From: a virus
DNA: 39,749 nucleotides
Virus record (IMG/VR): IMGVR_UViG_3300031669_000092
Span: 1 to 39,749 of that record
Direction: 5' to 3' (one strand)
Below the pieces are notes generated by a model that was not told the DNA's origin, did not search any database, and saw nothing but the letters and a program-made list of their open reading frames with translations. Made by a program: the position numbers and the translations under genes. This document shows positions 7,310 to 22,573 of the stretch, piece after piece (the first letter of the stretch is position 1; each line of letters begins with the position of its first letter).

Positions 7310-7320
7310 CTTAATTGTTT

Positions 7321-7336
7321 GTACCATTGCACGACC
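7321..7336 (+). repeat. 16-bp direct repeat, likely integrase arm site (copy 2)
   Basis: Exact copy of 7085-7100. It ends three bases before the integrase start codon, so bound integrase could also repress its own gene. Confidence 0.75.
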
Positions 7337-7339
7337 TTT

Positions 7340-8158
7340 ATGGCATCTCTGAAACCAGTCATTCGTAAGTCAAAGATCAAAATTGACCATAAATGTACGA
7401 TATATATTCGTATTTGTCAAGGCAGGAAAGTGTCTTATATCAAAACCCCCTGGTCAATTGAACCGAAATTTATGGGAGCGGACGGCAGGATCAGGCCCTC
7501 CTACCCGGGTTATACCACATTGAACAAGGCGATTTACAGGCTTCTGGTACAATATAACACCATAATAGAAGACCTGGGTCCGGAAGTTATATTTATAGAT
7601 ATCAACACACTTATCAACAAATTAAGGGGCCATGGAGACTCCGGGGCCGACTTCATAGTTTATGCCAGGGAGAGAATAGCCCGTCTGGAGGCAGAGAAAC
7701 GCCTCTCCTATGCGGAAAGCTACCAGGTCATGCTGACACACCTCAAAAGGCACACCGCGAAGGAAGGCCTCTTATTTAAAGAAATAACGGTAGATTTCCT
7801 GCAGGGCTTTGAACACTACCTTTTTTTACAGGGGTGCAAGGTGAATACAAGGAGGATCTATCTTAATAACATCCGGGCCATTTTCAATCATGCCATAGAC
7901 AGTGACGTGATAAAACAGGACCTCTTCCCGTTCAGGAAGTTCAAGATCAAACAGGAGCAGACACAAAAGAGATCGCTGGGGATCCTGCCCATACGGGAGC
8001 TGATGACCGGATCATACCTCCCGGCCCAGCACGAAGAGCCAGGAGCAGCTTATTCATTCTTTCGGAGTCAGTCATCTTATTTAGAATCGCTACAAATTAT
8101 GAATATTCGTCAATTAAATTTGTTTAATCGGATAATCTTTTATAATATTGTACCATAA
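7340..8158 (+). pseudogene. int: Tyrosine integrase lacking its catalytic domain
   Basis: The 272 residues from ATG 7340 contain the two N-terminal modules of a Bacteroidota-type phage integrase. First is an arm-DNA-binding domain (about 1-85, KIDHKCTIYIRICQGRKVSYI). Then comes the SAM-like core-binding domain (about 95-200), with the typical FEHYLFLQGCKVNTRRIYLN and IRAIFNHAID helices. After KRSLGILPIREL, where family members enter the catalytic domain, the sequence becomes unrelated (AYSFFRSQSSYLESL) and stops. Residues Arg, HxxR and Tyr of the active site are absent here, and I found no detached catalytic domain elsewhere. Normal length is near 380-420 residues. The att site and arm repeats next to it are intact. 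It could act as a DNA-binding fragment. Confidence 0.82.
8113..8150 (+). promoter_or_regulatory. Putative early promoter with overlapping inverted repeat
   Basis: TTTG at 8119-8122 and TAATATTG at 8143-8150 are 20 bases apart, close to the Bacteroidota -33/-7 arrangement (one mismatch in the -7). ATTAAA (8113-8118) and TTTAAT (8123-8128) form a small inverted repeat over the -33 box, a possible operator. The next gene starts at 8181. The promoter lies inside the divergent tail of the truncated integrase. Confidence 0.45.
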
Positions 8159-14177: not shown

Positions 14178-14482
14178 GCTCCCAACTTGACATTTACTTC
14201 CCGACGACCGATCTCACGGAGCAGGAGGTGAGGCAGCGGAAGCTCCGGGCCGGATTTCAGAACGCTGAGATCCTGAAGATATTCCAGAGTCACCCGGACC
14301 AATCATTTACACCATTTGAGATAAAAAATATATGGTTTGCCAGGGGCTACCGGCCCGTACCTCATACCAGCATACGGAGAGCAATAACCTCCCTGACAGA
14401 CCTGAAATATCTGGTCAAAACCCGGGAGATGCGTAAGGGAGAATATGGCGAAAACAATCATACATGGAGGCTAAAATTATGA
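14174..14482 (+). CDS. Winged-helix protein
   Basis: This 102-residue protein carries a winged-helix-like domain over most of its length. AEILKIFQSHPDQSFTPFEI is followed by SIRRAITSLTDLKYLVKTRE, and a short beta wing HTWRLKL ends the chain, as in MarR-like or phage replication-organising proteins. It overlaps the gene before it (ATGA) and the initiator-like gene after it. A role in replication control is inferred from position. Confidence 0.6.
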   Translation: MSSQLDIYFPTTDLTEQEVRQRKLRAGFQNAEILKIFQSHPDQSFTPFEIKNIWFARGYRPVPHTSIRRAITSLTDLKYLVKTREMRKGEYGENNHTWRLKL

Positions 14483-15300
14483 GTAAAGAACTCCCCTATT
14501 TCAGATTTACAGCTTTTGAATGGCTGGAGGGTGATATTAGCCTTGAGGACTATAAAACAAAAGGAGTATTTTCTGACATCTGCGCTTATTACTGGTTTAA
14601 GGATTGTAGTATAACTAAAGCAATGCTTGAGAAACGCTTTAGCAATGCTTTAACAGAGATAAAAACATTGATTGAGGCTGAAATTATTAAGTATAAAAAT
14701 GGAAATGAATTTTTGACAATTTCCTTCCTTGATGAACAATTTGACCAATTATCTGAATTACGCAAAGCCAGACAGGAAGCGGGACGGAAGGGTGGAAAGC
14801 AAAGCTTAAGCAAACCCAAAGCAAAACAGAAGCAAAAGCCAAGCTATAAAGATAAAGATAATAATAAAGATAAAGATAATAATAAAGATAAAGATAATAA
14901 TAATAGTGAATCAATAATACTAAAACGAGAAGATAAATTCAAGAGTGAAGTATTTGAATTTTTAGATAAATACCCGGAAGCAATGCTTAATAAGTTTTGC
15001 AATTACTGGACTGAAAAGAACAGAAGCAAAACTAAAATGCTATGGGAACTGAAACCAACTTTTGAAATAAGCAAGCGCCTTGCGACCTGGGCATCAAATA
15101 ATACAGAAATTGTTAAGAATAAAGAAAGCATACCATCTTATAAAACTTTTACATGGGATCAGATGCTTGAAAAACTTGATAAGGCCGGGGGTGTAAAATC
15201 ATTTTGGGACTCTTACAAGAAAGTCAAGTTAAATGGTTTGCCCACTGATGTTTGGATCCATGTTAACGACATTGCAAAGTACAATATTAAAAACGACTGA
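14479..15300 (+). CDS. Putative replication initiator (DUF4373/Lin1244-like N-terminus)
   Basis: This 273-residue protein begins at ATG 14479 in an ATGA overlap; an upstream ATG at 14464 adds five residues. The N-terminal domain (about 1-85: YFRFTAFEWLEGDISLEDYK, then FSDICAYYWF) resembles the winged-helix domain of phage initiator-like proteins in Bacteroidota and Firmicutes. A low-complexity Lys/Asp/Asn linker at about 120-145 is encoded by three perfect 18-bp repeats. The C-terminal domain (about 155-273) is helical and contains FCNYWTEKN and RLATWASN, seen in such proteins. Having iterons inside an initiator gene parallels lambda O. Function inferred. Confidence 0.65.
   Translation: MSKELPYFRFTAFEWLEGDISLEDYKTKGVFSDICAYYWFKDCSITKAMLEKRFSNALTEIKTLIEAEIIKYKNGNEFLTISFLDEQFDQLSELRKARQEAGRKGGKQSLSKPKAKQKQKPSYKDKDNNKDKDNNKDKDNNNSESIILKREDKFKSEVFEFLDKYPEAMLNKFCNYWTEKNRSKTKMLWELKPTFEISKRLATWASNNTEIVKNKESIPSYKTFTWDQMLEKLDKAGGVKSFWDSYKKVKLNGLPTDVWIHVNDIAKYNIKND
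14848..14901 (+). repeat. Three 18-bp iteron-like tandem repeats (candidate origin)
   Basis: AAAGATAAAGATAATAAT occurs three times without a mismatch, embedded in an AT-rich stretch of the putative initiator gene. Each unit also contains two AAAGAT hexamers. Candidate origin by analogy with lambda-type origins inside initiator genes. The alternative is replication slippage in a disordered linker. Confidence 0.85.
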
Positions 15301-15301
15301 T

Positions 15302-15886
15302 ATGAACCCGGCCCTCGTCATAATACCCGTGACATGCGGAACCATTAACAGGGACAAATACCTGGCAGAATGTATGAAGCATGTAATGAACTCCGGACAT
15401 TTCCCGCTTTCAAAGGATGTTTATGGCAGTTATATGAACGTGGATCCGGACAAATTCACAAAAACAATGCTCGGACTTTGCGAGACGGCTTATCTGTTTA
15501 TTGACTTTGGGATGAGTGATAAAATGAGAGAGATGGCAGAACAAGCTATAAAAAGCGATATCCCGGTGACCTATGTGAAGATATTCAATAACGAACCGCC
15601 GGGAATATTCCTTTGCTCATTGAATGACATCCTCCAGGATGTAAGCTACAGAACAAAAGTACCGATAGAGAGCATGAAGCGGAAAACCCGGAAAAGAGAG
15701 ATTGTGGATGCTCGTTTTATTTACTTCAGAAGAGCCAGGGATGTATTTGGAAAGAAAATATCACTTGCCAAAATAGGCATGGAGATAGGTAGGGATCATG
15801 CAACGGTAATGCATGGTATAAAAGAAGCAACCGAGACAAAAGAAGTTGTCGATCAATACAGGCAGTACTATGGAACAGGGGAATAG
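15302..15886 (+). CDS. DnaA domain IV fused to deoxyribosyltransferase-like domain
   Basis: This 194-residue protein starts at ATG 15302, two bases after the upstream stop. Residues 1-100 resemble a Rossmann-like nucleoside 2-deoxyribosyltransferase/DUF4406-DUF7768-type domain (LVIIPVTCGTINRDKYLAEC, then AYLFIDFGMSDKM). Residues about 118-180 match DnaA domain IV: IVDARFIYFRRARDVFG, ISLAKIGMEI, and the DnaA-box-reading signature GRDHATVMHG at 163-172. The AAA+ domain of DnaA is absent. It could recruit or compete with host DnaA, or regulate at DnaA boxes. The DnaA part is strong; the N-terminal assignment is moderate. Confidence 0.83.
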   Translation: MNPALVIIPVTCGTINRDKYLAECMKHVMNSGHFPLSKDVYGSYMNVDPDKFTKTMLGLCETAYLFIDFGMSDKMREMAEQAIKSDIPVTYVKIFNNEPPGIFLCSLNDILQDVSYRTKVPIESMKRKTRKREIVDARFIYFRRARDVFGKKISLAKIGMEIGRDHATVMHGIKEATETKEVVDQYRQYYGTGE

Positions 15887-16262
15887 CATATATGAATATT
15901 ACGAGAAGATAAGCTACCGGTTTTTCCTTGCCAGAGAAAAGGGGCTGAAGAGGCAGCATTGCTGGGAACCGATGGCGCGAGAGATCAAAATACCGGGATA
16001 TAAGGAATTTGATTTTTTCCTTTTACCTGAAGGACAGGGGAAAAATAAGCTTTGTGAAGGATTGTCCGGGGCCTGCATTATTGACCAGCAGGAGCTCCCT
16101 CATAGATGGCAAAGAAGATATAAACAATACTATTTTATCAGATCCCTGCCAGAACTCCTCCATGAACTCGGAGGCAGGGGAGCCATTAACCAGGCGATTA
16201 TAAACTTCATCTTTGATAACGACCAGCATATATCACCGAGATATAAAACCAAGAAACCATGA
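15870..16262 (+). CDS. Conserved phage protein, unknown
   Basis: This 130-residue protein starts at ATG 15870, overlapping the previous gene by 17 bases; the only upstream alternative is a TTG. It contains YYEKISYRFFLAREKGLKRQ and ends with INQAIINFIFDND. Aromatic and basic residues are frequent and no catalytic motif stands out. Its stop overlaps the start of the methyltransferase (ATGA). Function unknown. Confidence 0.55.
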   Translation: MEQGNSIYEYYEKISYRFFLAREKGLKRQHCWEPMAREIKIPGYKEFDFFLLPEGQGKNKLCEGLSGACIIDQQELPHRWQRRYKQYYFIRSLPELLHELGGRGAINQAIINFIFDNDQHISPRYKTKKP

Positions 16263-16981
16263 CAAAACTTTTCAATATAGATTGCATGATTAAGATGGCA
16301 GAATATCCTGACAAATACTTTGATCTGGCTATTGTTGACCCTCCGTATGGGATAGACGTGGCACAAATGGCATATACACAAGAAGAAAATCGCCCATGCA
16401 AACAAAAGAACGGCTCAATATTAAGAGTTAAAAAACTTAGATATAAACACGGTGATTGGGACAAGACGCCACCGACACAGGAATATTTTGATGAGTTATT
16501 CCGAATAAGTCGCCATCAAATTATTTGGGGCATAAATTACGTGACTCATTTAATCAGGAATAAGGGTGGGGGCAGGATTAAATGGGATAAATTAGTTCCC
16601 GAAGGTATGAGTTTTAATAGATACGAGTATGCTTATTGTAGTTTAATAGATAATGAGGTTGTGTTCAAATATCTTTGGGCGGGGATGTGCCAAGCGAAAT
16701 CACTCAAAGAGCCGACAACCCAACAGGGCAATAAAAAATTAAATGAAGAGAGAATACACCCCACCCATAAGCCTATAAATCTTTACAAATGGCTTTTAAA
16801 GAACTATGCCAAGCCTTCCGATAAAATTATAGACACTCATTTAGGTTCCGGTTCATCCGCTATTGCCTGTTACGACTTTGGGATAGCTGAATTTGTAGGA
16901 TGTGAAATTGACAAAGATTACTACGGTGCAGCGGTCAAGAGATTTGAGAACCATAAGTTACAACAACAGATACAATTTTAA
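16259..16981 (+). CDS. DNA adenine/cytosine-N4 methyltransferase, DPPY type
   Basis: This 240-residue class beta amino-methyltransferase has the catalytic DPPY at 27-30 before the SAM-binding motif DTHLGSGSS at 192-200. The HPTHKP element at 167-172 is the usual neighbour of the SAM motif. The target recognition region (about 35-165) is short, so this is a phage-type orphan enzyme with no restriction partner nearby. Likely role: modifying phage DNA to evade host restriction. AT-rich compared with the next gene. DPPY favours adenine-N6. Confidence 0.9.
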   Translation: MTKLFNIDCMIKMAEYPDKYFDLAIVDPPYGIDVAQMAYTQEENRPCKQKNGSILRVKKLRYKHGDWDKTPPTQEYFDELFRISRHQIIWGINYVTHLIRNKGGGRIKWDKLVPEGMSFNRYEYAYCSLIDNEVVFKYLWAGMCQAKSLKEPTTQQGNKKLNEERIHPTHKPINLYKWLLKNYAKPSDKIIDTHLGSGSSAIACYDFGIAEFVGCEIDKDYYGAAVKRFENHKLQQQIQF

Positions 16982-16984
16982 AAC

Positions 16985-17551
16985 ATGAACAAACTACCCA
17001 TCCACAGGCATGACTTTGCCAGGGACCGATGGAGCTGGAGACGGTACCAGTTCACCCTGGTCTTTATGAAGAGACATATCCCGCAAGGGAAAGTGGTATT
17101 TGATCTCGGCACAATTAATGGCCTTAGCATCTTTATGAAAGAAAATGGCTACAAGGTTTTTAATACCATTGGGGAGGACTTTGATTTGGAAATGCCATAT
17201 CAACTTATGGATGCCGACGTGACAACAGCCTTTGAAATCATTGAACACCTTATGAATCCGCTTTTATTACTCAGGGCATTGAAAACTAAAAAACTTTTGG
17301 CTTCAGTACCCTTGAGATTATGGTTTGCTCCGGCCTTCAGGCATCCAGACAATCCGGCAGGCCGACATTTTCACGAATTTGAACAATGGCAGATGGACTG
17401 GCTCCTGGAGAAAGCAGGATGGAAGATCATAGCCAGGGAGAAGCATACCGGGCCGACATTCCAGATCGGGATCCGGTCCATACTGAGATGGATAACACCC
17501 AGATATTATTTGATTTACGCGGAAAGGGAGGGGCAATGCAAAAGCATCTAA
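16985..17551 (+). CDS. SAM-dependent methyltransferase (glycan-cluster type)
   Basis: A 188-residue class I methyltransferase-like protein. The SAM-binding motif is degenerate: VVFDLGTINGLSIFM replaces the usual GxGxG loop. The later FEIIEHLMNPLLLLRALK and LLASVPLRLWF segments fit the Methyltransf_11/23 fold found in polysaccharide and LPS gene clusters. Its composition is GC-richer than the DNA methyltransferases on either side. It overlaps the following gene by 16 bases. Substrate unknown; a sugar or small molecule is more likely than DNA because no DPPY or PCQ motif is present. Confidence 0.65.
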   Translation: MNKLPIHRHDFARDRWSWRRYQFTLVFMKRHIPQGKVVFDLGTINGLSIFMKENGYKVFNTIGEDFDLEMPYQLMDADVTTAFEIIEHLMNPLLLLRALKTKKLLASVPLRLWFAPAFRHPDNPAGRHFHEFEQWQMDWLLEKAGWKIIAREKHTGPTFQIGIRSILRWITPRYYLIYAEREGQCKSI

Positions 17552-18381
17552 ATCTCGTATCATATTTTGGAGGAAAATATCCACATCTTAAATGGTTGAT
17601 CAGTAAATTTCCTGCAGGCAATTATCATTTTATTGATATCATGTGCGGAAGTGCAAATATTGCTCTTAATGTCAAATATCCCCTTGTTACTGTGAATGAT
17701 ATCAATAATGAAATTATAAACTTGTTCAATGTGCTCAGGGATCATTATGATGAATTTATTCGTGTCCTTTATTTTACGCCGTTTTCCAGAGAGGAATTAA
17801 ATAGAATAATTACCGATAGTATTAACGGAGTTCAGTTGCCCGATATTGAAAGAGCCAGAAGATACTTTGTTAAATGCCAGTTAGGTTATGGTGGCAATGG
17901 ATCACAGAACAATCATTATGGCGCTGGCTTTGAATGGGTTTTGCACGAGACTAATTATTACCATGTCGATAATTGGAATTTAAAATTAAAGCGACTTGCA
18001 AAGATTGTTGCCAGACTTCGCCAATTTCAGATAGAGAATCGCAATGCATTTGATCTGTTCGATAGAGTAAACCATAAGGGCAATATTGTGTATTTCGATC
18101 CGCCTTATTTATTAAGTCTAAGAAAGTCAAAAAGGAAGAGATATCGCTATGAACAGGACAATAATTTTCATATTCGTTTAGCAGAAAAAATTAGTGAAGC
18201 TAAATGTTTTGTTGCAATCTCAGGATATAATTCTCTATTGTATGATGAGATTTTCTCAAAGATGTGTAAATCAATGGATTTGGCAAAAAGAAGCAATATG
18301 GGGAAACATATTACAAGAGAATGTCTGTGGACTAATTATGATCCTGAAGCAGTCAATGGGATTTTAAAATTAAATCTATGA
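17536..18381 (+). CDS. D12 class DNA adenine-N6 methyltransferase (Dam-like)
   Basis: This 281-residue protein starts at ATG 17536; the open frame extends upstream only into the neighbouring gene. It shows the D12/alpha class order: FGGKYP (11-16), SAM motif FIDIMCGSANIAL (32-44), and catalytic DPPY at 188-191. Family members methylate adenine, often in GATC. It probably protects phage DNA or mimics host methylation. It is AT-rich and interrupts the GC-richer glycan genes. Confidence 0.9.
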   Translation: MQKHLNLVSYFGGKYPHLKWLISKFPAGNYHFIDIMCGSANIALNVKYPLVTVNDINNEIINLFNVLRDHYDEFIRVLYFTPFSREELNRIITDSINGVQLPDIERARRYFVKCQLGYGGNGSQNNHYGAGFEWVLHETNYYHVDNWNLKLKRLAKIVARLRQFQIENRNAFDLFDRVNHKGNIVYFDPPYLLSLRKSKRKRYRYEQDNNFHIRLAEKISEAKCFVAISGYNSLLYDEIFSKMCKSMDLAKRSNMGKHITRECLWTNYDPEAVNGILKLNL

Positions 18382-19109
18382 TATTTAAAAAACACCAGAA
18401 CCCGGAGTTTACGGCCGTGAGGTACAAAGAGATCCTCCATTATTGGAAGGGAAGATTCGGGATCATCCCACTTGGATCACCGCACAGTGAAATCGGGATC
18501 CTGCTCCGTCATGACATAGACGACGACCTTGACCGGGCAGTACGCATGGCAGAAGTGGAGGCAGGGATAGATAACGACCTCAACCGGGCCATGTTTCAGC
18601 ATGGCGATATCGCCCTCTGCAGAAGCACTTATTTTGCCCTCAATACAGCGAAATACTGGAAAAGTAAGGAGTGTTTTGAGGCACTACGGTATATTCAGGA
18701 CCTCGGCCATGAGATAGGATGGCATAACAACGCCCTGGCATCCTGGTACCGCTCCCTGGACGTGTCTATAAGACCACACATAATAAGGCCCCTCGATGAA
18801 TTGAGATCCCACGGTCTGATAATAAAGGGAACGGCAGCACATGGAGACCGGCTATGTCGGGAGTTCAGGTTTATGAATTATAACATCTGGGGACTGCGGA
18901 GTCCAGGCTGGCTCTGGAGTGGGCTCCAATTCGGAGGCTTTAAACTTGAGGATTTCGGACTGGAATATGAAGCCTACCACATACCCTTTGATGATTACCT
19001 GACAGATAACGGAGGAAGGTGGTGCAAACCATTTGAAGATACCGCGAAAAAATGGATAGCAGGGAAAAGATACCAAGTAATAATTCACCCACAGCACTGG
19101 GATCTATGA
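18378..19109 (+). CDS. Polysaccharide deacetylase-like protein (NodB-related)
   Basis: A 243-residue protein with the signatures of the NodB-like deacetylase fold: LLRHDIDDDLDRAV (metal-binding HD-x-DD), STYFAL, LGHEIGWHNN, the GTAAHGD segment, and the terminal VIIHPQHW. These are the positions of the metal-binding Asp/His residues and the final His loop. Homologues occur in capsule and LPS clusters. Here it would act on a sugar intermediate or cell-surface glycan. No signal peptide, so it is cytoplasmic. It overlaps both neighbours by ATGA junctions. Confidence 0.75.
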   Translation: MIFKKHQNPEFTAVRYKEILHYWKGRFGIIPLGSPHSEIGILLRHDIDDDLDRAVRMAEVEAGIDNDLNRAMFQHGDIALCRSTYFALNTAKYWKSKECFEALRYIQDLGHEIGWHNNALASWYRSLDVSIRPHIIRPLDELRSHGLIIKGTAAHGDRLCREFRFMNYNIWGLRSPGWLWSGLQFGGFKLEDFGLEYEAYHIPFDDYLTDNGGRWCKPFEDTAKKWIAGKRYQVIIHPQHWDL

Positions 19110-20050
19110 GACATGGTTCGCTATTTTCAGGTATCGGGGGGTTTGACTTGGCTGCACAATGGATGGGATGGGAGAATGTTTTTCAGGTTGAAAACGATAA
19201 ATTCTGTATAAAAGGTTTAGAGAAGAATTTTCCAAATGTAAAAAGATATGGAGACATTAAAGAATTTGACGGGACAAAATATAGAGGACTTATTGACATT
19301 CTCACAGGCGGGTTTCCATGCCAGGGGTTCTCTGTTGCCGGGAAGCAAAGAGGCAAATCAGATCCTCGCTGGCTCTGGCCGGAAATGTTTCGAGTTATAC
19401 GGGCGATACGTCCACCTTGGGTCGTTGGTGAAAATGTTCCTGGAATCATCAAACTGGCAATCGAAGATATTTGTATTGCGCTGGAAAGTGAAGGCTATGC
19501 CGTCCAGCCGTTTATTATTCCATCTGCGAGCATCGGAGCATGGGACAAAAGGGACAGGGTATGGATCATTGCTCACTTTAACGGCAACAGAAAGGTGGTG
19601 CAAAGACGAAACGGAGATAGTAATAACAAAGAACGGCACAGCACGAAGGAAATACAAGAACGGATCAACAAGCAGTTTGGGATTATCAAGTCAAATACAA
19701 AGAGCAATCCCAACCCTAACAAACTCAACAGCGACAATGCAGGACATAATTCAGGCACAATACCACAGCAGCAAAAGACCGAAGTACAGTTCAATAAAAA
19801 CATTACAAGCATCGGACGGGAAAACAGCATATATGGGAAAAAACAGAAAAGGAAAACAGATAAATTTTACCACAGACCTACGGGAAATGACTGGTGGGAA
19901 AAAAACTGGATTGAAGTTGCATCCGAACTTTGCAGAAGTAATGCAAGGGTTCCCAATAGGATGGACAGAATAAAAGCATTAGGTAACTCGGTTAATCCGT
20001 ATGTTGTCTATGAGATATTTAAAGCAATAGAACAATATAGCAATCTATGA
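19106..20050 (+). CDS. dcm: DNA cytosine-5 methyltransferase
   Basis: This 314-residue C5 methyltransferase starts at ATG 19106 in an ATGA overlap. Motif I is SLFSGIGGFDLA (5-16), the catalytic PCQ loop is at 71-73 (GGFPCQGFSVAGK), motif VI ENV is at 109-111, and motif VIII is KRDRVW at 148-153. The C-terminal motifs are RVPNRMDRIKALGNSVNPYV. The target recognition region (about 158-265) is polar and low in complexity. A second long frame (+1) lies wholly inside this gene. Probable role: anti-restriction or epigenetic marking. No cognate endonuclease is visible. Confidence 0.93.
   Translation: MRHGSLFSGIGGFDLAAQWMGWENVFQVENDKFCIKGLEKNFPNVKRYGDIKEFDGTKYRGLIDILTGGFPCQGFSVAGKQRGKSDPRWLWPEMFRVIRAIRPPWVVGENVPGIIKLAIEDICIALESEGYAVQPFIIPSASIGAWDKRDRVWIIAHFNGNRKVVQRRNGDSNNKERHSTKEIQERINKQFGIIKSNTKSNPNPNKLNSDNAGHNSGTIPQQQKTEVQFNKNITSIGRENSIYGKKQKRKTDKFYHRPTGNDWWEKNWIEVASELCRSNARVPNRMDRIKALGNSVNPYVVYEIFKAIEQYSNL
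19248..19973 (+). CDS. Overprinted +1-frame protein inside the cytosine methyltransferase gene
   Basis: A 241-codon frame without stops lies wholly inside dcm. Its translation is not random. GRKCFELYGRYVHLGSLVKM, then LRWKVKAMPSSRLLFHLRAS and GTGYGSLLTLTATE, and the end LHPNFAEVMQGFPIGWTE, follow the pattern of a phage protein family usually annotated as DNA-methylase-associated (WKxxATPSGRLLFRLxPS, TPTAT, LNPxFVEWLMGFPIGWT). So both frames carry motifs of known families over the same DNA. It may be a real overprinted gene, a frameshift product with the methyltransferase N-terminus, or a database-wide shadow family. Expression is unproven; the start at 19248 is nominal. Confidence 0.45.
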   Translation: METLKNLTGQNIEDLLTFSQAGFHARGSLLPGSKEANQILAGSGRKCFELYGRYVHLGSLVKMFLESSNWQSKIFVLRWKVKAMPSSRLLFHLRASEHGTKGTGYGSLLTLTATERWCKDETEIVITKNGTARRKYKNGSTSSLGLSSQIQRAIPTLTNSTATMQDIIQAQYHSSKRPKYSSIKTLQASDGKTAYMGKNRKGKQINFTTDLREMTGGKKTGLKLHPNFAEVMQGFPIGWTE

Positions 20051-20784
20051 AAACCCTCCTGATAACATATTACTGGCACCCTTACCTGAGCCCCGGAGCC
20101 CTGAGATGGTTAGGCTTTGGTGGGCATATGGACTTTGATGTTTTGACTTGCTGGAGGCCTCTGCGGGACAAAAAAGACGAAACTATGCCGTCGCTGGAGC
20201 GGAAGGTCCTCCGTTTCGGGTACCGGATCCCGGCAATAATATGGGGAGTACTGGCCACATTGCCGGCGCTTTTCATGAAGAGGGACCTCTATATTTTCAC
20301 AGCCCCCCCGGAGGCCCTATTCATCCCGGCCTGGATATTACAGAAGCTCGGCAGGAAAGTGCTCCTGGACCTAAGAGACAGCATAACAAGGGAGAGACGG
20401 CCCCACAAATGGCTCACCGGACTATGGATCAGGATATATTCACAGATCAGCCAGGTGGTGGTTTGTGCCAGGATTGTGGACCAGGGGAAAAGAGTGATCT
20501 ATCACGGCCATGACGGGATCCGGAGGGATTCCAGGGCAATGGATCCTCCGGTATATTACAGCTCCCAAGTGAATTATGAGACATACATGCTCCTTTTAAG
20601 GCATGGCTTTATAAAAGATTTCTCAGGAAAGCCCTGGGGCTATGGAGCCAGCTCCTATCATAACATCAGGCATCTGGGCTATGAGGTGAACATCTCACTT
20701 GCCGAAGACGAATATGGACAGCACAGCTGGGAGGAGGAGGCCGGGAAATTGAAGGAAATAATTAAAAAAATAATGAAGTGCTAA
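20047..20784 (+). CDS. Glycosyltransferase family 4-like protein, N-terminal domain only
   Basis: This 245-residue protein resembles the N-terminal Rossmann half of GT4 enzymes. It has a LLITYYWHPYLSPGALRWLG start, DLYIFTAPPEALFIPAWILQ, and VLLDLRDSI, which corresponds to the LVLDxRD strand. The C-terminal sugar-nucleotide-binding half with its E-x7-E motif is missing and replaced by an unrelated tail (YGASSYHNIRHLGYEVNISL onward). It may be a truncated or repurposed enzyme, or the partner of the full GT4 gene at 21440. It is GC-rich and overlaps dcm by ATGA. Confidence 0.6.
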   Translation: MKTLLITYYWHPYLSPGALRWLGFGGHMDFDVLTCWRPLRDKKDETMPSLERKVLRFGYRIPAIIWGVLATLPALFMKRDLYIFTAPPEALFIPAWILQKLGRKVLLDLRDSITRERRPHKWLTGLWIRIYSQISQVVVCARIVDQGKRVIYHGHDGIRRDSRAMDPPVYYSSQVNYETYMLLLRHGFIKDFSGKPWGYGASSYHNIRHLGYEVNISLAEDEYGQHSWEEEAGKLKEIIKKIMKC

Positions 20785-20801
20785 GGGAATCAAAAGGCAA
20801 T

Positions 20802-21443
20802 ATGTATAGTTGGATAACACATACATGGAATCCAATAAAAGGTGAATGTCCGCATAATTGTACTTACTGTTATATGAAGCGATGGGGCAAACAGAAGCCA
20901 GTTCATTTTGACGAGGAGGAACTTAGAGTTAATATAGGCACTGGCAATTTTATTTTTGTCGGATCGAGTTGTGATATATTTGCTGATGAAATTTCCAGTA
21001 TTTGGATTACAGATACTCTTAAAAAATGCGATTTTTTTACTGGCAACCGATATTTATTTCAGAGCAAAAATCCACGGCGCTTTATGGAATTTATTAATTA
21101 CTTTCCAGACGGGCGAAGGACTCGTTTATGTACGACAATAGAATCTAATAGGCGTTATCATCAAATGGGATTATCGCCCATTCCTGAAATGAGAGCTGAT
21201 GCAATGTTTCATATAGAGGGATTTAAAAAATATGTAACCATTGAACCTATTATGGATTTTGATTTAGCCCCATTGGTTGATATGATTTGGATGTGCAAAC
21301 CAATACAGGTTAATATCGGTGCTGATTCCGGGAACAATAATTTACCCGAACCTTCAAAAGAAAAGATATTAGAACTTATTGATGAACTTAAAAAGTTTAC
21401 AGTTATAGACCAGAAAAGAAACCTTAAAAGGCTTTTGACATGA
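20802..21443 (+). CDS. Radical SAM protein of the phage Gp37/Gp68-like (DUF5131) type
   Basis: This 213-residue protein, taken from ATG 20802 (a GTG at 20778 is possible), begins MYSWITHTWNPIKGECPHNC and continues TYCYM. Cys16, Cys20 and Cys23 form the CxxxCxxC iron-sulfur motif of radical SAM enzymes. FIFVGSSCDIFADEI and YLFQSKNPRRFMEF are conserved in phage Gp37/Gp68-like proteins. Their substrate is unknown; spore-photoproduct-lyase-like DNA chemistry has been suspected because of the sequence kinship. Its place among DNA methyltransferases suggests nucleic-acid modification, which is an inference. AT-rich. Confidence 0.78.
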   Translation: MYSWITHTWNPIKGECPHNCTYCYMKRWGKQKPVHFDEEELRVNIGTGNFIFVGSSCDIFADEISSIWITDTLKKCDFFTGNRYLFQSKNPRRFMEFINYFPDGRRTRLCTTIESNRRYHQMGLSPIPEMRADAMFHIEGFKKYVTIEPIMDFDLAPLVDMIWMCKPIQVNIGADSGNNNLPEPSKEKILELIDELKKFTVIDQKRNLKRLLT

Positions 21444-22573
21444 AAATCTTAATGCTACTTGAAAACAATTATCCCGGAGATCTCCGGGTGGAGAATGAGA
21501 TCCGGGCACTTGAAAGATCCGGGCATATGATCAGATTAATTTCAGGGACTGAGACAATGCCGGAGCTGATCCGGAAGAGCTTCATAGCCCATCCCTGGCT
21601 TCCTATGTACGAAAACTGGTGGAGAAAGCGAGTCCGGGAATTGATAAAAGGGCAGGAATTTGATGCCATCCACATCCATGACCTCCCGCTGGCAAGGCTG
21701 GGATATGAGACATCCAGGGCAAAGAAGATCCCCTTCATATTGGATCTCCATGAGAACTACCCAGCCCTGCTCAGGGATGCCACGCACACAAAGAAACCAC
21801 TGGGCAGGATCCTGCACAGCGACAAAGCCTGGAGGAGGTTTGAGAGGGACTATATCCTGACCGCTGACAGGATTATTGTCACTTGCAAGGAGTCATCTCT
21901 CAGAATAAGGGGAGAATATCACAGAGTGGCATGGATCATTCAGAACACCCCAGACCTTTTGCGAATCCCAAATATGGAAGATAAAAAACCATTCAGGGAT
22001 GGGATACTGAAAATATTCTATGCTGGGGCCATCAATAAGCACCGGGGCCTGCAGACAGTTATTGAAGCGATCCGGATCCTTTATAACAAACATGACATAA
22101 TCGCCTGGCTGACCATTGCCGGGGAGGGAAGCTACAAAAAAGAACTGCAAAGGCAAGCCTCCACATTACCAAGGCAGCCGGCAATAATGGTCCGTTTTGT
22201 CGGGCAGCAGTCCTTTGATACGATATTCAGGATGATGAGGGAGCACCACATCGGGATAATTCCACACCTCAGAAACGAGAATAATGATGCCAGCTCGCCA
22301 CACAAGCTATTCCAATACATGGCAACCGGGATCCCCATCCTGGCATCCGACTGCCCCTCGGTAGCGAGAATCGTAAAAAACAACGGGGCCGGATATGTTT
22401 ACGAGGCTGGAAATGCAAGAGATCTGGCAGACTGGATCAGACGAATAGACGAAAACAGGGATCTCCTGGATATAGGGGATATGGGGATTAGGGCAGTTTA
22501 TAACAAATACAACTGGATAAACGACTCCCAGGGATTAATCAACCTTTACAATAATGGAGTATCTGGCTTATAA
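21440..22573 (+). CDS. Glycosyltransferase family 4 (GT-B fold)
   Basis: A complete 377-residue GT4. The N-terminal acceptor domain begins MKILMLLENNYPGDLRVENE and contains FDAIHIHDLP and ILDLHENYPALLRD. The C-terminal donor domain contains FYAGAINKHRGLQTVIEAIR, LTIAGEGSYKKEL, and the nucleotide-sugar-binding NDASSPHKLFQYMATGIPIL, followed by GYVYEAGNARDLADWI. Cytoplasmic, possibly membrane-associated. It may glycosylate host surface polysaccharide (serotype conversion) or modified phage DNA; context alone does not decide. It overlaps the radical SAM gene by four bases. Confidence 0.88.
   Translation: MKILMLLENNYPGDLRVENEIRALERSGHMIRLISGTETMPELIRKSFIAHPWLPMYENWWRKRVRELIKGQEFDAIHIHDLPLARLGYETSRAKKIPFILDLHENYPALLRDATHTKKPLGRILHSDKAWRRFERDYILTADRIIVTCKESSLRIRGEYHRVAWIIQNTPDLLRIPNMEDKKPFRDGILKIFYAGAINKHRGLQTVIEAIRILYNKHDIIAWLTIAGEGSYKKELQRQASTLPRQPAIMVRFVGQQSFDTIFRMMREHHIGIIPHLRNENNDASSPHKLFQYMATGIPILASDCPSVARIVKNNGAGYVYEAGNARDLADWIRRIDENRDLLDIGDMGIRAVYNKYNWINDSQGLINLYNNGVSGL

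What the first reader, a model, noticed from the sequence alone, without database searches (positions are those of the whole stretch)
15302..15886. DnaA domain IV fused to a deoxyribosyltransferase-like domain
The C-terminus has the DnaA-box-binding signature (GRDHATVMHG) without the AAA+ ATPase, while the N-terminus looks like a nucleotide-processing Rossmann domain. It could bring a phage initiator to DnaA boxes, block host initiation, or link nucleotide sensing with replication.
Basis: partly seen in the sequence, partly recalled or inferred. Interest (0 to 1): 0.65.

Follow-up and report, generated by a model that had tools for sequence, protein, structure and literature searches.

The report
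Phage DnaA-domain protein with fused Rossmann-like domain
A bacterial virus carries a small gene that joins the DNA-reading end of the bacterial replication starter DnaA to a worn-down relative of a nucleotide-enzyme domain; it sits next to the virus's likely replication start site, and the join also occurs in one related virus, so it is real, but what it does has not been tested.

Summary
The 194-aa ORF at 15302-15886 carries a clear DnaA domain IV (Bac_DnaA_C, E=3.6e-14) and no AAA+ ATPase. The fusion is not a sequencing error: an independent viral contig (L100) encodes the same architecture at 58% identity, followed by the same overlapping downstream gene. The N-terminus belongs with the deoxyribosyltransferase-like DUF7768 family (profile-profile probability 97%) but scores below Pfam's cut-off. 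It has lost that family's invariant polar residues (S, H, D, E-R) and a segment around them, so enzyme activity is unlikely.

Phage DnaA_C proteins without AAA+ are common: 46 sequence groups were collected here, some already annotated 'DnaA'. In nine loci, the window included, one lies within three genes of a replisome-organizer or primosomal gene; eight of those nine genes contain iteron-like repeats. Canonical DnaA boxes are not enriched in the window or in 43 loci.

Best reading: an accessory DNA-binding protein of the phage replication module, in which DnaA_C chooses the site and the degenerate DUF7768 domain is a protein-contact or ligand-binding part. The architecture is new to the collections searched but of a known kind. 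Host-initiation blocking and nucleotide sensing remain possible and untested.

The parts
15302..15886 (+). DUF7768-like / DnaA domain IV fusion gene, 194 aa plus stop
   Evidence: ORF; full-length relative in L100:1812-2402, 58% identity
15302..15613 (+). N-terminal degenerate DUF7768 (nucleoside-deoxyribosyltransferase-like) domain, residues 1-104
   Evidence: hhalign 97.1% to a DUF7768 alignment; custom HMM E=1.6e-4; Pfam sub-threshold; invariant residues lost
15623..15823 (+). DnaA domain IV (Bac_DnaA_C, PF08299), residues 108-174
   Evidence: E=3.6e-14, above cut-off; positions of E. coli DnaA R399, R407, D433, H434, T436 conserved, Q408 replaced by F
14464..15300 (+). gene directly upstream: predicted replisome organizer / primosomal protein
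   Evidence: phrog_29280 and phrog_19415; relatives L013:3315-3740 (phmmer 1e-19; phrog 'primosomal protein') and the L071/L064/L048 genes (phrog 'replication initiation O-like', 'replisome organizer', 'primosomal protein')
14796..14903 (+). iteron-like arrays inside that gene: 11-bp x 4.2 (14796-14842) then AT-rich 18-bp x 3.2 (14846-14903); candidate phage replication origin
   Evidence: TRF; such arrays in 8 of 9 replisome-organizer genes against 3 of 179 other ORFs of similar size in the loci
15870..16262 (+). downstream gene of unknown function, overlapping the fusion's 3' end by 17 bp; conserved partner in L100
   Evidence: L100:2377-2775 relative, E=4e-46, same overlapping order; no Pfam or PHROG match; no match in the phage collection

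Best explanation
It is an accessory, sequence-specific dsDNA-binding protein of the phage replication module. The C-terminal DnaA domain IV reads the DNA through its basic loop and helix-turn-helix. Lacking an AAA+ domain, it cannot by itself form the ATP-dependent DnaA filament that opens DNA. The N-terminal domain is a catalytically dead DUF7768-like Rossmann-type domain kept as a protein-protein (oligomerisation or recruitment) or ligand-binding part. Most likely it binds near the origin inside or beside the replisome-organizer gene just upstream and helps that organizer assemble the phage replisome, or tunes expression of that module. Shown: the two domains, the fusion's conservation, loss of the conserved polar residues, the module context and the iteron arrays. 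Inferred: DNA binding, the site bound, the N-domain's role and the effect on replication.
For: DnaA_C match and absence of AAA+. DnaA-box contact positions R399, R407, H434 nearly invariant across 42 phage DnaA_C domains and kept here, with D433 and T436 (contact assignments from my knowledge of the 1J1V structure). Fusion conserved in L100. The upstream neighbour is a replisome-organizer relative with internal iterons. In eight further divergent loci a DnaA_C gene without AAA+ lies within three genes of a replisome-organizer or primosomal gene (L013, L071, L070, L065, L064, L048, L002, L181), and L183 has a DnaB-like helicase two genes downstream. Repeat arrays lie in 8 of 9 such genes against 3 of 179 other ORFs, Fisher p=4e-11. 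DUF7768 active-site-like residues are lost. DnaA domain IV alone gives sequence-specific dsDNA binding (PMC5835720).
Against: No binding site is identified: DnaA boxes are not enriched in the window or the related loci. In the relative L100 the gene directly upstream is a DNA methylase-like gene, not a replisome organizer (the contig begins just before it). Many DnaA_C genes in other phages lie by RecE-type exonuclease or terminase genes instead, so a replication role is not general. AlphaFold models were too poor to use (mean pLDDT below 40). Only two fusion sequences are known.
Confidence: 0.5

Rival explanations
1. A phage early transcription regulator: the DnaA_C head binds operator sites and the N-domain dimerises or senses a small molecule. 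It has no direct role in replication.
For: DnaA_C is a helix-turn-helix DNA-binding domain; DnaA_C genes occur in several phage neighbourhoods (recombination, terminase, Mu-like) with no constant replication partner; fusion of a ligand-type domain to an HTH is the usual layout of regulators (general knowledge).
Against: Repeated linkage to iteron-bearing replisome-organizer genes in nine loci; no operator-like repeat specific to the fusion gene was found.
Confidence: 0.25
2. A host-takeover protein that competes with host DnaA for oriC boxes and stops host initiation.
For: Most box-contact positions are kept; a DnaA-box-binding protein without AAA+ would act as a dominant-negative competitor; boxes are not enriched in the phage, consistent with the target lying elsewhere.
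Against: Position Q408 is changed here and in most of the phage DnaA_C domains examined, unlike in the three Bacteroidales DnaA proteins compared, so specificity may differ; no host genome could be tied to this phage.
Confidence: 0.12
3. An active enzyme: the N-domain cleaves or transfers a nucleoside's glycosidic bond, and DnaA_C places it on DNA or links nucleotide supply to origin activity.
For: The N-domain is related to DUF7768 and weakly to phrog_355 nucleoside 2-deoxyribosyltransferase (L100); nucleoside deoxyribosyltransferases fused to conflict proteins have been proposed to act on DNA (PMC3710099).
Against: The DUF7768 invariants S8, H39, D48, E53, R54 are absent from both fusions and the segment around E-R is deleted.
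Confidence: 0.08

Closest known systems
DnaA domain IV (Bac_DnaA_C, PF08299) of the chromosomal initiator DnaA
   Same: Same domain family; positions R399 (basic loop), R407, D433, H434, T436 kept.
   Different: No AAA+ ATPase and no domain I; Q408 position is F and T435 position is A; fused to an unrelated N-terminal domain.
Phage DnaA_C-only proteins (e.g. Olleya phage Harreka_1 gp24, Pelagibacter phage HTVC100P gp21; PHROG 16091 unknown function, 27829 'DnaA-like replication initiation protein')
   Same: DnaA_C without AAA+, in phage early, replication or recombination regions.
   Different: Those are mostly 105-185 aa, usually with DnaA_C near the N-terminus followed by a short tail; none collected has a DUF7768-like domain.
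DnaA_C + VRR_NUC nuclease fusion (L002/L003, IMG/VR)
   Same: Phage DnaA_C joined to a second functional domain, beside a replication-initiator gene.
   Different: Partner domain is a nuclease and lies C-terminal; DnaA_C is N-terminal.
DUF7768 (PF24963), phage proteins sometimes annotated nucleoside deoxyribosyltransferase (e.g. Vibrio phage pYD21-A, Gordonia phage Huffy gp70)
   Same: N-terminal domain aligns over its whole length; P9, P35, G57 and the M of the terminal GM are kept.
   Different: Stand-alone there; the fusion lacks the family's invariant S, H, D, E-R and about 9-11 residues, and scores below Pfam's cut-off.

Membership tests
DnaA chromosomal replication initiator | Domain IV (Bac_DnaA_C) | tested here: met
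   E=3.6e-14, above curated cut-off
DnaA chromosomal replication initiator | AAA+ ATPase domain III | tested here: not met
   No AAA+ match; DnaA NCBIfam models align only at their C-terminal ends and score far below cut-off
DnaA chromosomal replication initiator | Binds DnaA boxes | not testable with these tools
   Contact positions mostly conserved; boxes not enriched in the phage
Phage DnaA_C proteins without AAA+ | Bac_DnaA_C without AAA+ in a phage genome | tested here: met
   46 of 46 collected representatives, this one included, match PF08299
DUF7768 (PF24963) | Score above Pfam's gathering cut-off | tested here: not met
   16 bits (window N-domain) and 21.1 bits (L100) against 26
DUF7768 (PF24963) | Homology over the whole domain by profile comparison | tested here: met
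   hhalign 97.1%, 97 columns; custom HMM hits
DUF7768 (PF24963) | Invariant residues of 11 aligned members (S8, P9, P35, H39, D48, E53, R54, G57, G61, G82, M83) | tested here: not met
   Only P9, P35, G57 and M83 are retained in both fusions; S8, H39, D48, E53, R54, G61, G82 are lost
Nucleoside 2-deoxyribosyltransferase | Catalytic glutamate nucleophile (Glu98, cited in PMC3710099) | tested here: inconclusive
   No Glu is shared by the two fusion N-domains, but no direct alignment to the enzyme was possible; PDB searches with the profiles found nothing
Phage replication module | Adjacent replisome organizer with internal origin-like iterons | tested here: met
   Window gene 14464-15300

The most novel reading that the evidence does not exclude
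In this phage lineage a Rossmann-type nucleotide-binding domain has taken the place of DnaA's AAA+ domain, giving a switchable origin-binding protein whose DNA binding depends on a nucleotide or modified nucleoside, so that phage replication starts only when precursors are available.
Probability: 0.08. Interest if true: 0.7.

Novelty: new variant of a known kind. Interest (0 to 1): 0.4.

Why it matters
DnaA domain IV without its motor turns up in many unrelated phages, often next to a candidate replication origin, yet I found no study of what it does in the papers searched. Fusions such as this one, and the VRR_NUC one, hint at what the DNA-reading head is used to deliver. If the protein binds the phage origin, it would show a way of marking origins without DnaA's ATPase; if it binds host oriC, it would be a simple dominant-negative shut-off of host replication. 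Both are easy to test.

Tried and rejected
Structure prediction of the fusion, alone and with its one relative: mean pLDDT below 40, so no fold search was run. PDB sequence searches for the N-domain: nothing. Fusion relatives in bacterial genomes: two scans of genome contigs gave no confirmed relative; plasmids gave one DnaA_C-region match only. More fusions in IMG/VR: only L100. DnaA-box clusters: none; the apparent depletion in 43 loci was not kept as a finding because 5.75% of permuted patterns are as rare. Human-gut 'Bacteriophage sp.' hits MT838945, MT835965, MT839331 were set aside: they encode DnaA with its AAA+ part beside housekeeping-type genes and look bacterial. A separate DUF7768 gene in the DnaA_C loci was looked for and not found. 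Literature searches found phage 'DnaA' annotations (PMC4615864, PMC6811365) but no functional study.

Full report
What is there. The window is an entire 39,749-bp linear virus record with a terminase gene and, by eye, portal, capsid and tape-measure-type genes. ORF 15302-15886 encodes 194 aa. Residues 108-174 are a DnaA domain IV (PF08299, E=3.6e-14). No AAA+ domain is present, and the DnaA models of NCBIfam match only at their C-terminal ends.

Is the fusion real? Yes. A terminase-guided search brought in L100, a 14.8-kb contig whose terminase is 83% identical. It encodes a 196-aa protein that aligns from end to end at 58% identity. The gene after it, overlapping its 3' end, is also shared (E=4e-46) and has no other relative found. 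Synonymous change is near saturation and non-synonymous change moderate (N-domain dN 0.41, dS 2.0; C-domain dN 0.29 with dS not computable), which fits selection on both halves, roughly estimated. No other fusion was found in IMG/VR, GTDB genomes, phage or plasmid records; these scans reach mainly close relatives.

The N-terminal domain. Pfam offers only DUF7768, below cut-off (window E=0.016, L100 E=4e-4). Vibrio phage pYD21-A gp18, a true DUF7768 protein (E=2.5e-26), aligns weakly with it. Eleven DUF7768 phage proteins were aligned. hhalign against the two fusion N-domains gives 97.1%, and an HMM of the eleven picks out the two fusions next after its own members. Some DUF7768 proteins are annotated nucleoside deoxyribosyltransferase. 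In the joint alignment the family's invariant S8, H39, D48, E53-R54 and G61 are lost in both fusions and about 9-11 residues around them are deleted, while P9, P35, G57 and the last M are kept.

The C-terminal domain. At the E. coli DnaA positions R399, R407, D433, H434 and T436 the protein matches E. coli; T435 is A (as in the Bacteroidales DnaA proteins compared) and Q408 is F. Across 42 phage DnaA_C domains R399, R407 and H434 are nearly invariant, while position 408 varies and Q is not among the common residues. The roles of these residues in box contact are from my knowledge of the 1J1V structure; the papers held did not list them. DNA binding is therefore likely, and binding to the canonical box less certain.

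A wider family. A DnaA_C alignment search and a DNA pattern returned 90 phage loci. Clustering at 70% identity left 46 groups of phage DnaA_C proteins without AAA+, most of 105-185 aa, and all 46 representatives scanned match PF08299. PHROGs mostly calls them unknown; two match 'DnaA-like replication initiation protein'. Published phage genomes carry the label DnaA (PMC4615864, PMC6811365; Pelagibacter phage HTVC100P). One pair of contigs has DnaA_C joined to VRR_NUC.

Context. The gene just upstream, 14464-15300, shares PHROG families with genes that match replication-initiation O-like, replisome-organizer and primosomal families. It holds an 11-bp x 4.2 array followed by an AT-rich 18-bp x 3.2 array, the arrangement of phage origins that lie inside the organizer gene, as in lambda O (general knowledge). 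In eight further loci DnaA_C genes lie within three genes of such a gene; 8 of the 9 organizer genes carry arrays against 3 of 179 other ORFs of similar length (p=4e-11). The organizer genes were chosen by me from the neighbours, so this shows that they look like origin-bearing organizers, not that DnaA_C genes prefer them. Other DnaA_C genes lie near RecE-type exonuclease or terminase genes.

DnaA boxes. TTWTNCACA occurs twice in the window (3.1 expected) and 26 times in 43 loci (46 expected); 5.75% of permuted patterns are as rare. There is no box cluster for the protein to bind on the phage.

Conclusion. An accessory replication-module DNA-binding protein is the best reading (0.5), ahead of an early regulator (0.25), host oriC competitor (0.12) and active enzyme (0.08). 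The architecture is a new variant of a known kind of phage protein.

Noticed in passing
L002:3947-4621 and L003:3947-4621 (IMG/VR): Another phage DnaA_C fusion, to a VRR_NUC nuclease domain (PF08774 E=1.8e-5), beside a replication-initiator gene.
   Followed up: partly
window 14796-14903: Two adjacent repeat arrays (11-bp and AT-rich 18-bp) inside the predicted replisome-organizer gene: candidate phage replication origin.
   Followed up: partly
L023, L046 and similar loci (IMG/VR): DnaA_C genes a few genes upstream of a ~400-aa terminase-like gene or next to a DUF3799/RecE-type exonuclease, a second recurring neighbourhood for this domain (tallies).
   Followed up: partly
L066:5736-6257 (IMG/VR): DnaA_C protein in a Mu-like phage, a few genes after MuA-like transposase and MuB-like genes.
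   Followed up: no
MT838945.1, MT835965.1, MT839331.1 ('Bacteriophage sp.', human gut): These records encode DnaA with its AAA+ part and housekeeping-type genes and look like bacterial DNA deposited as phage.
   Followed up: no
window 7319-8158: 279-aa ORF resembles the N-terminal part of a Bacteroidetes-type tyrosine integrase and seems to lack the catalytic domain; judged by eye only.
   Followed up: no
window 16259-22573: Cluster of DNA methyltransferase-like, glycosyltransferase-like and radical-SAM-like (20778-21443) genes between the replication and packaging modules; only the first (16259-16981) was checked by profile.
   Followed up: no
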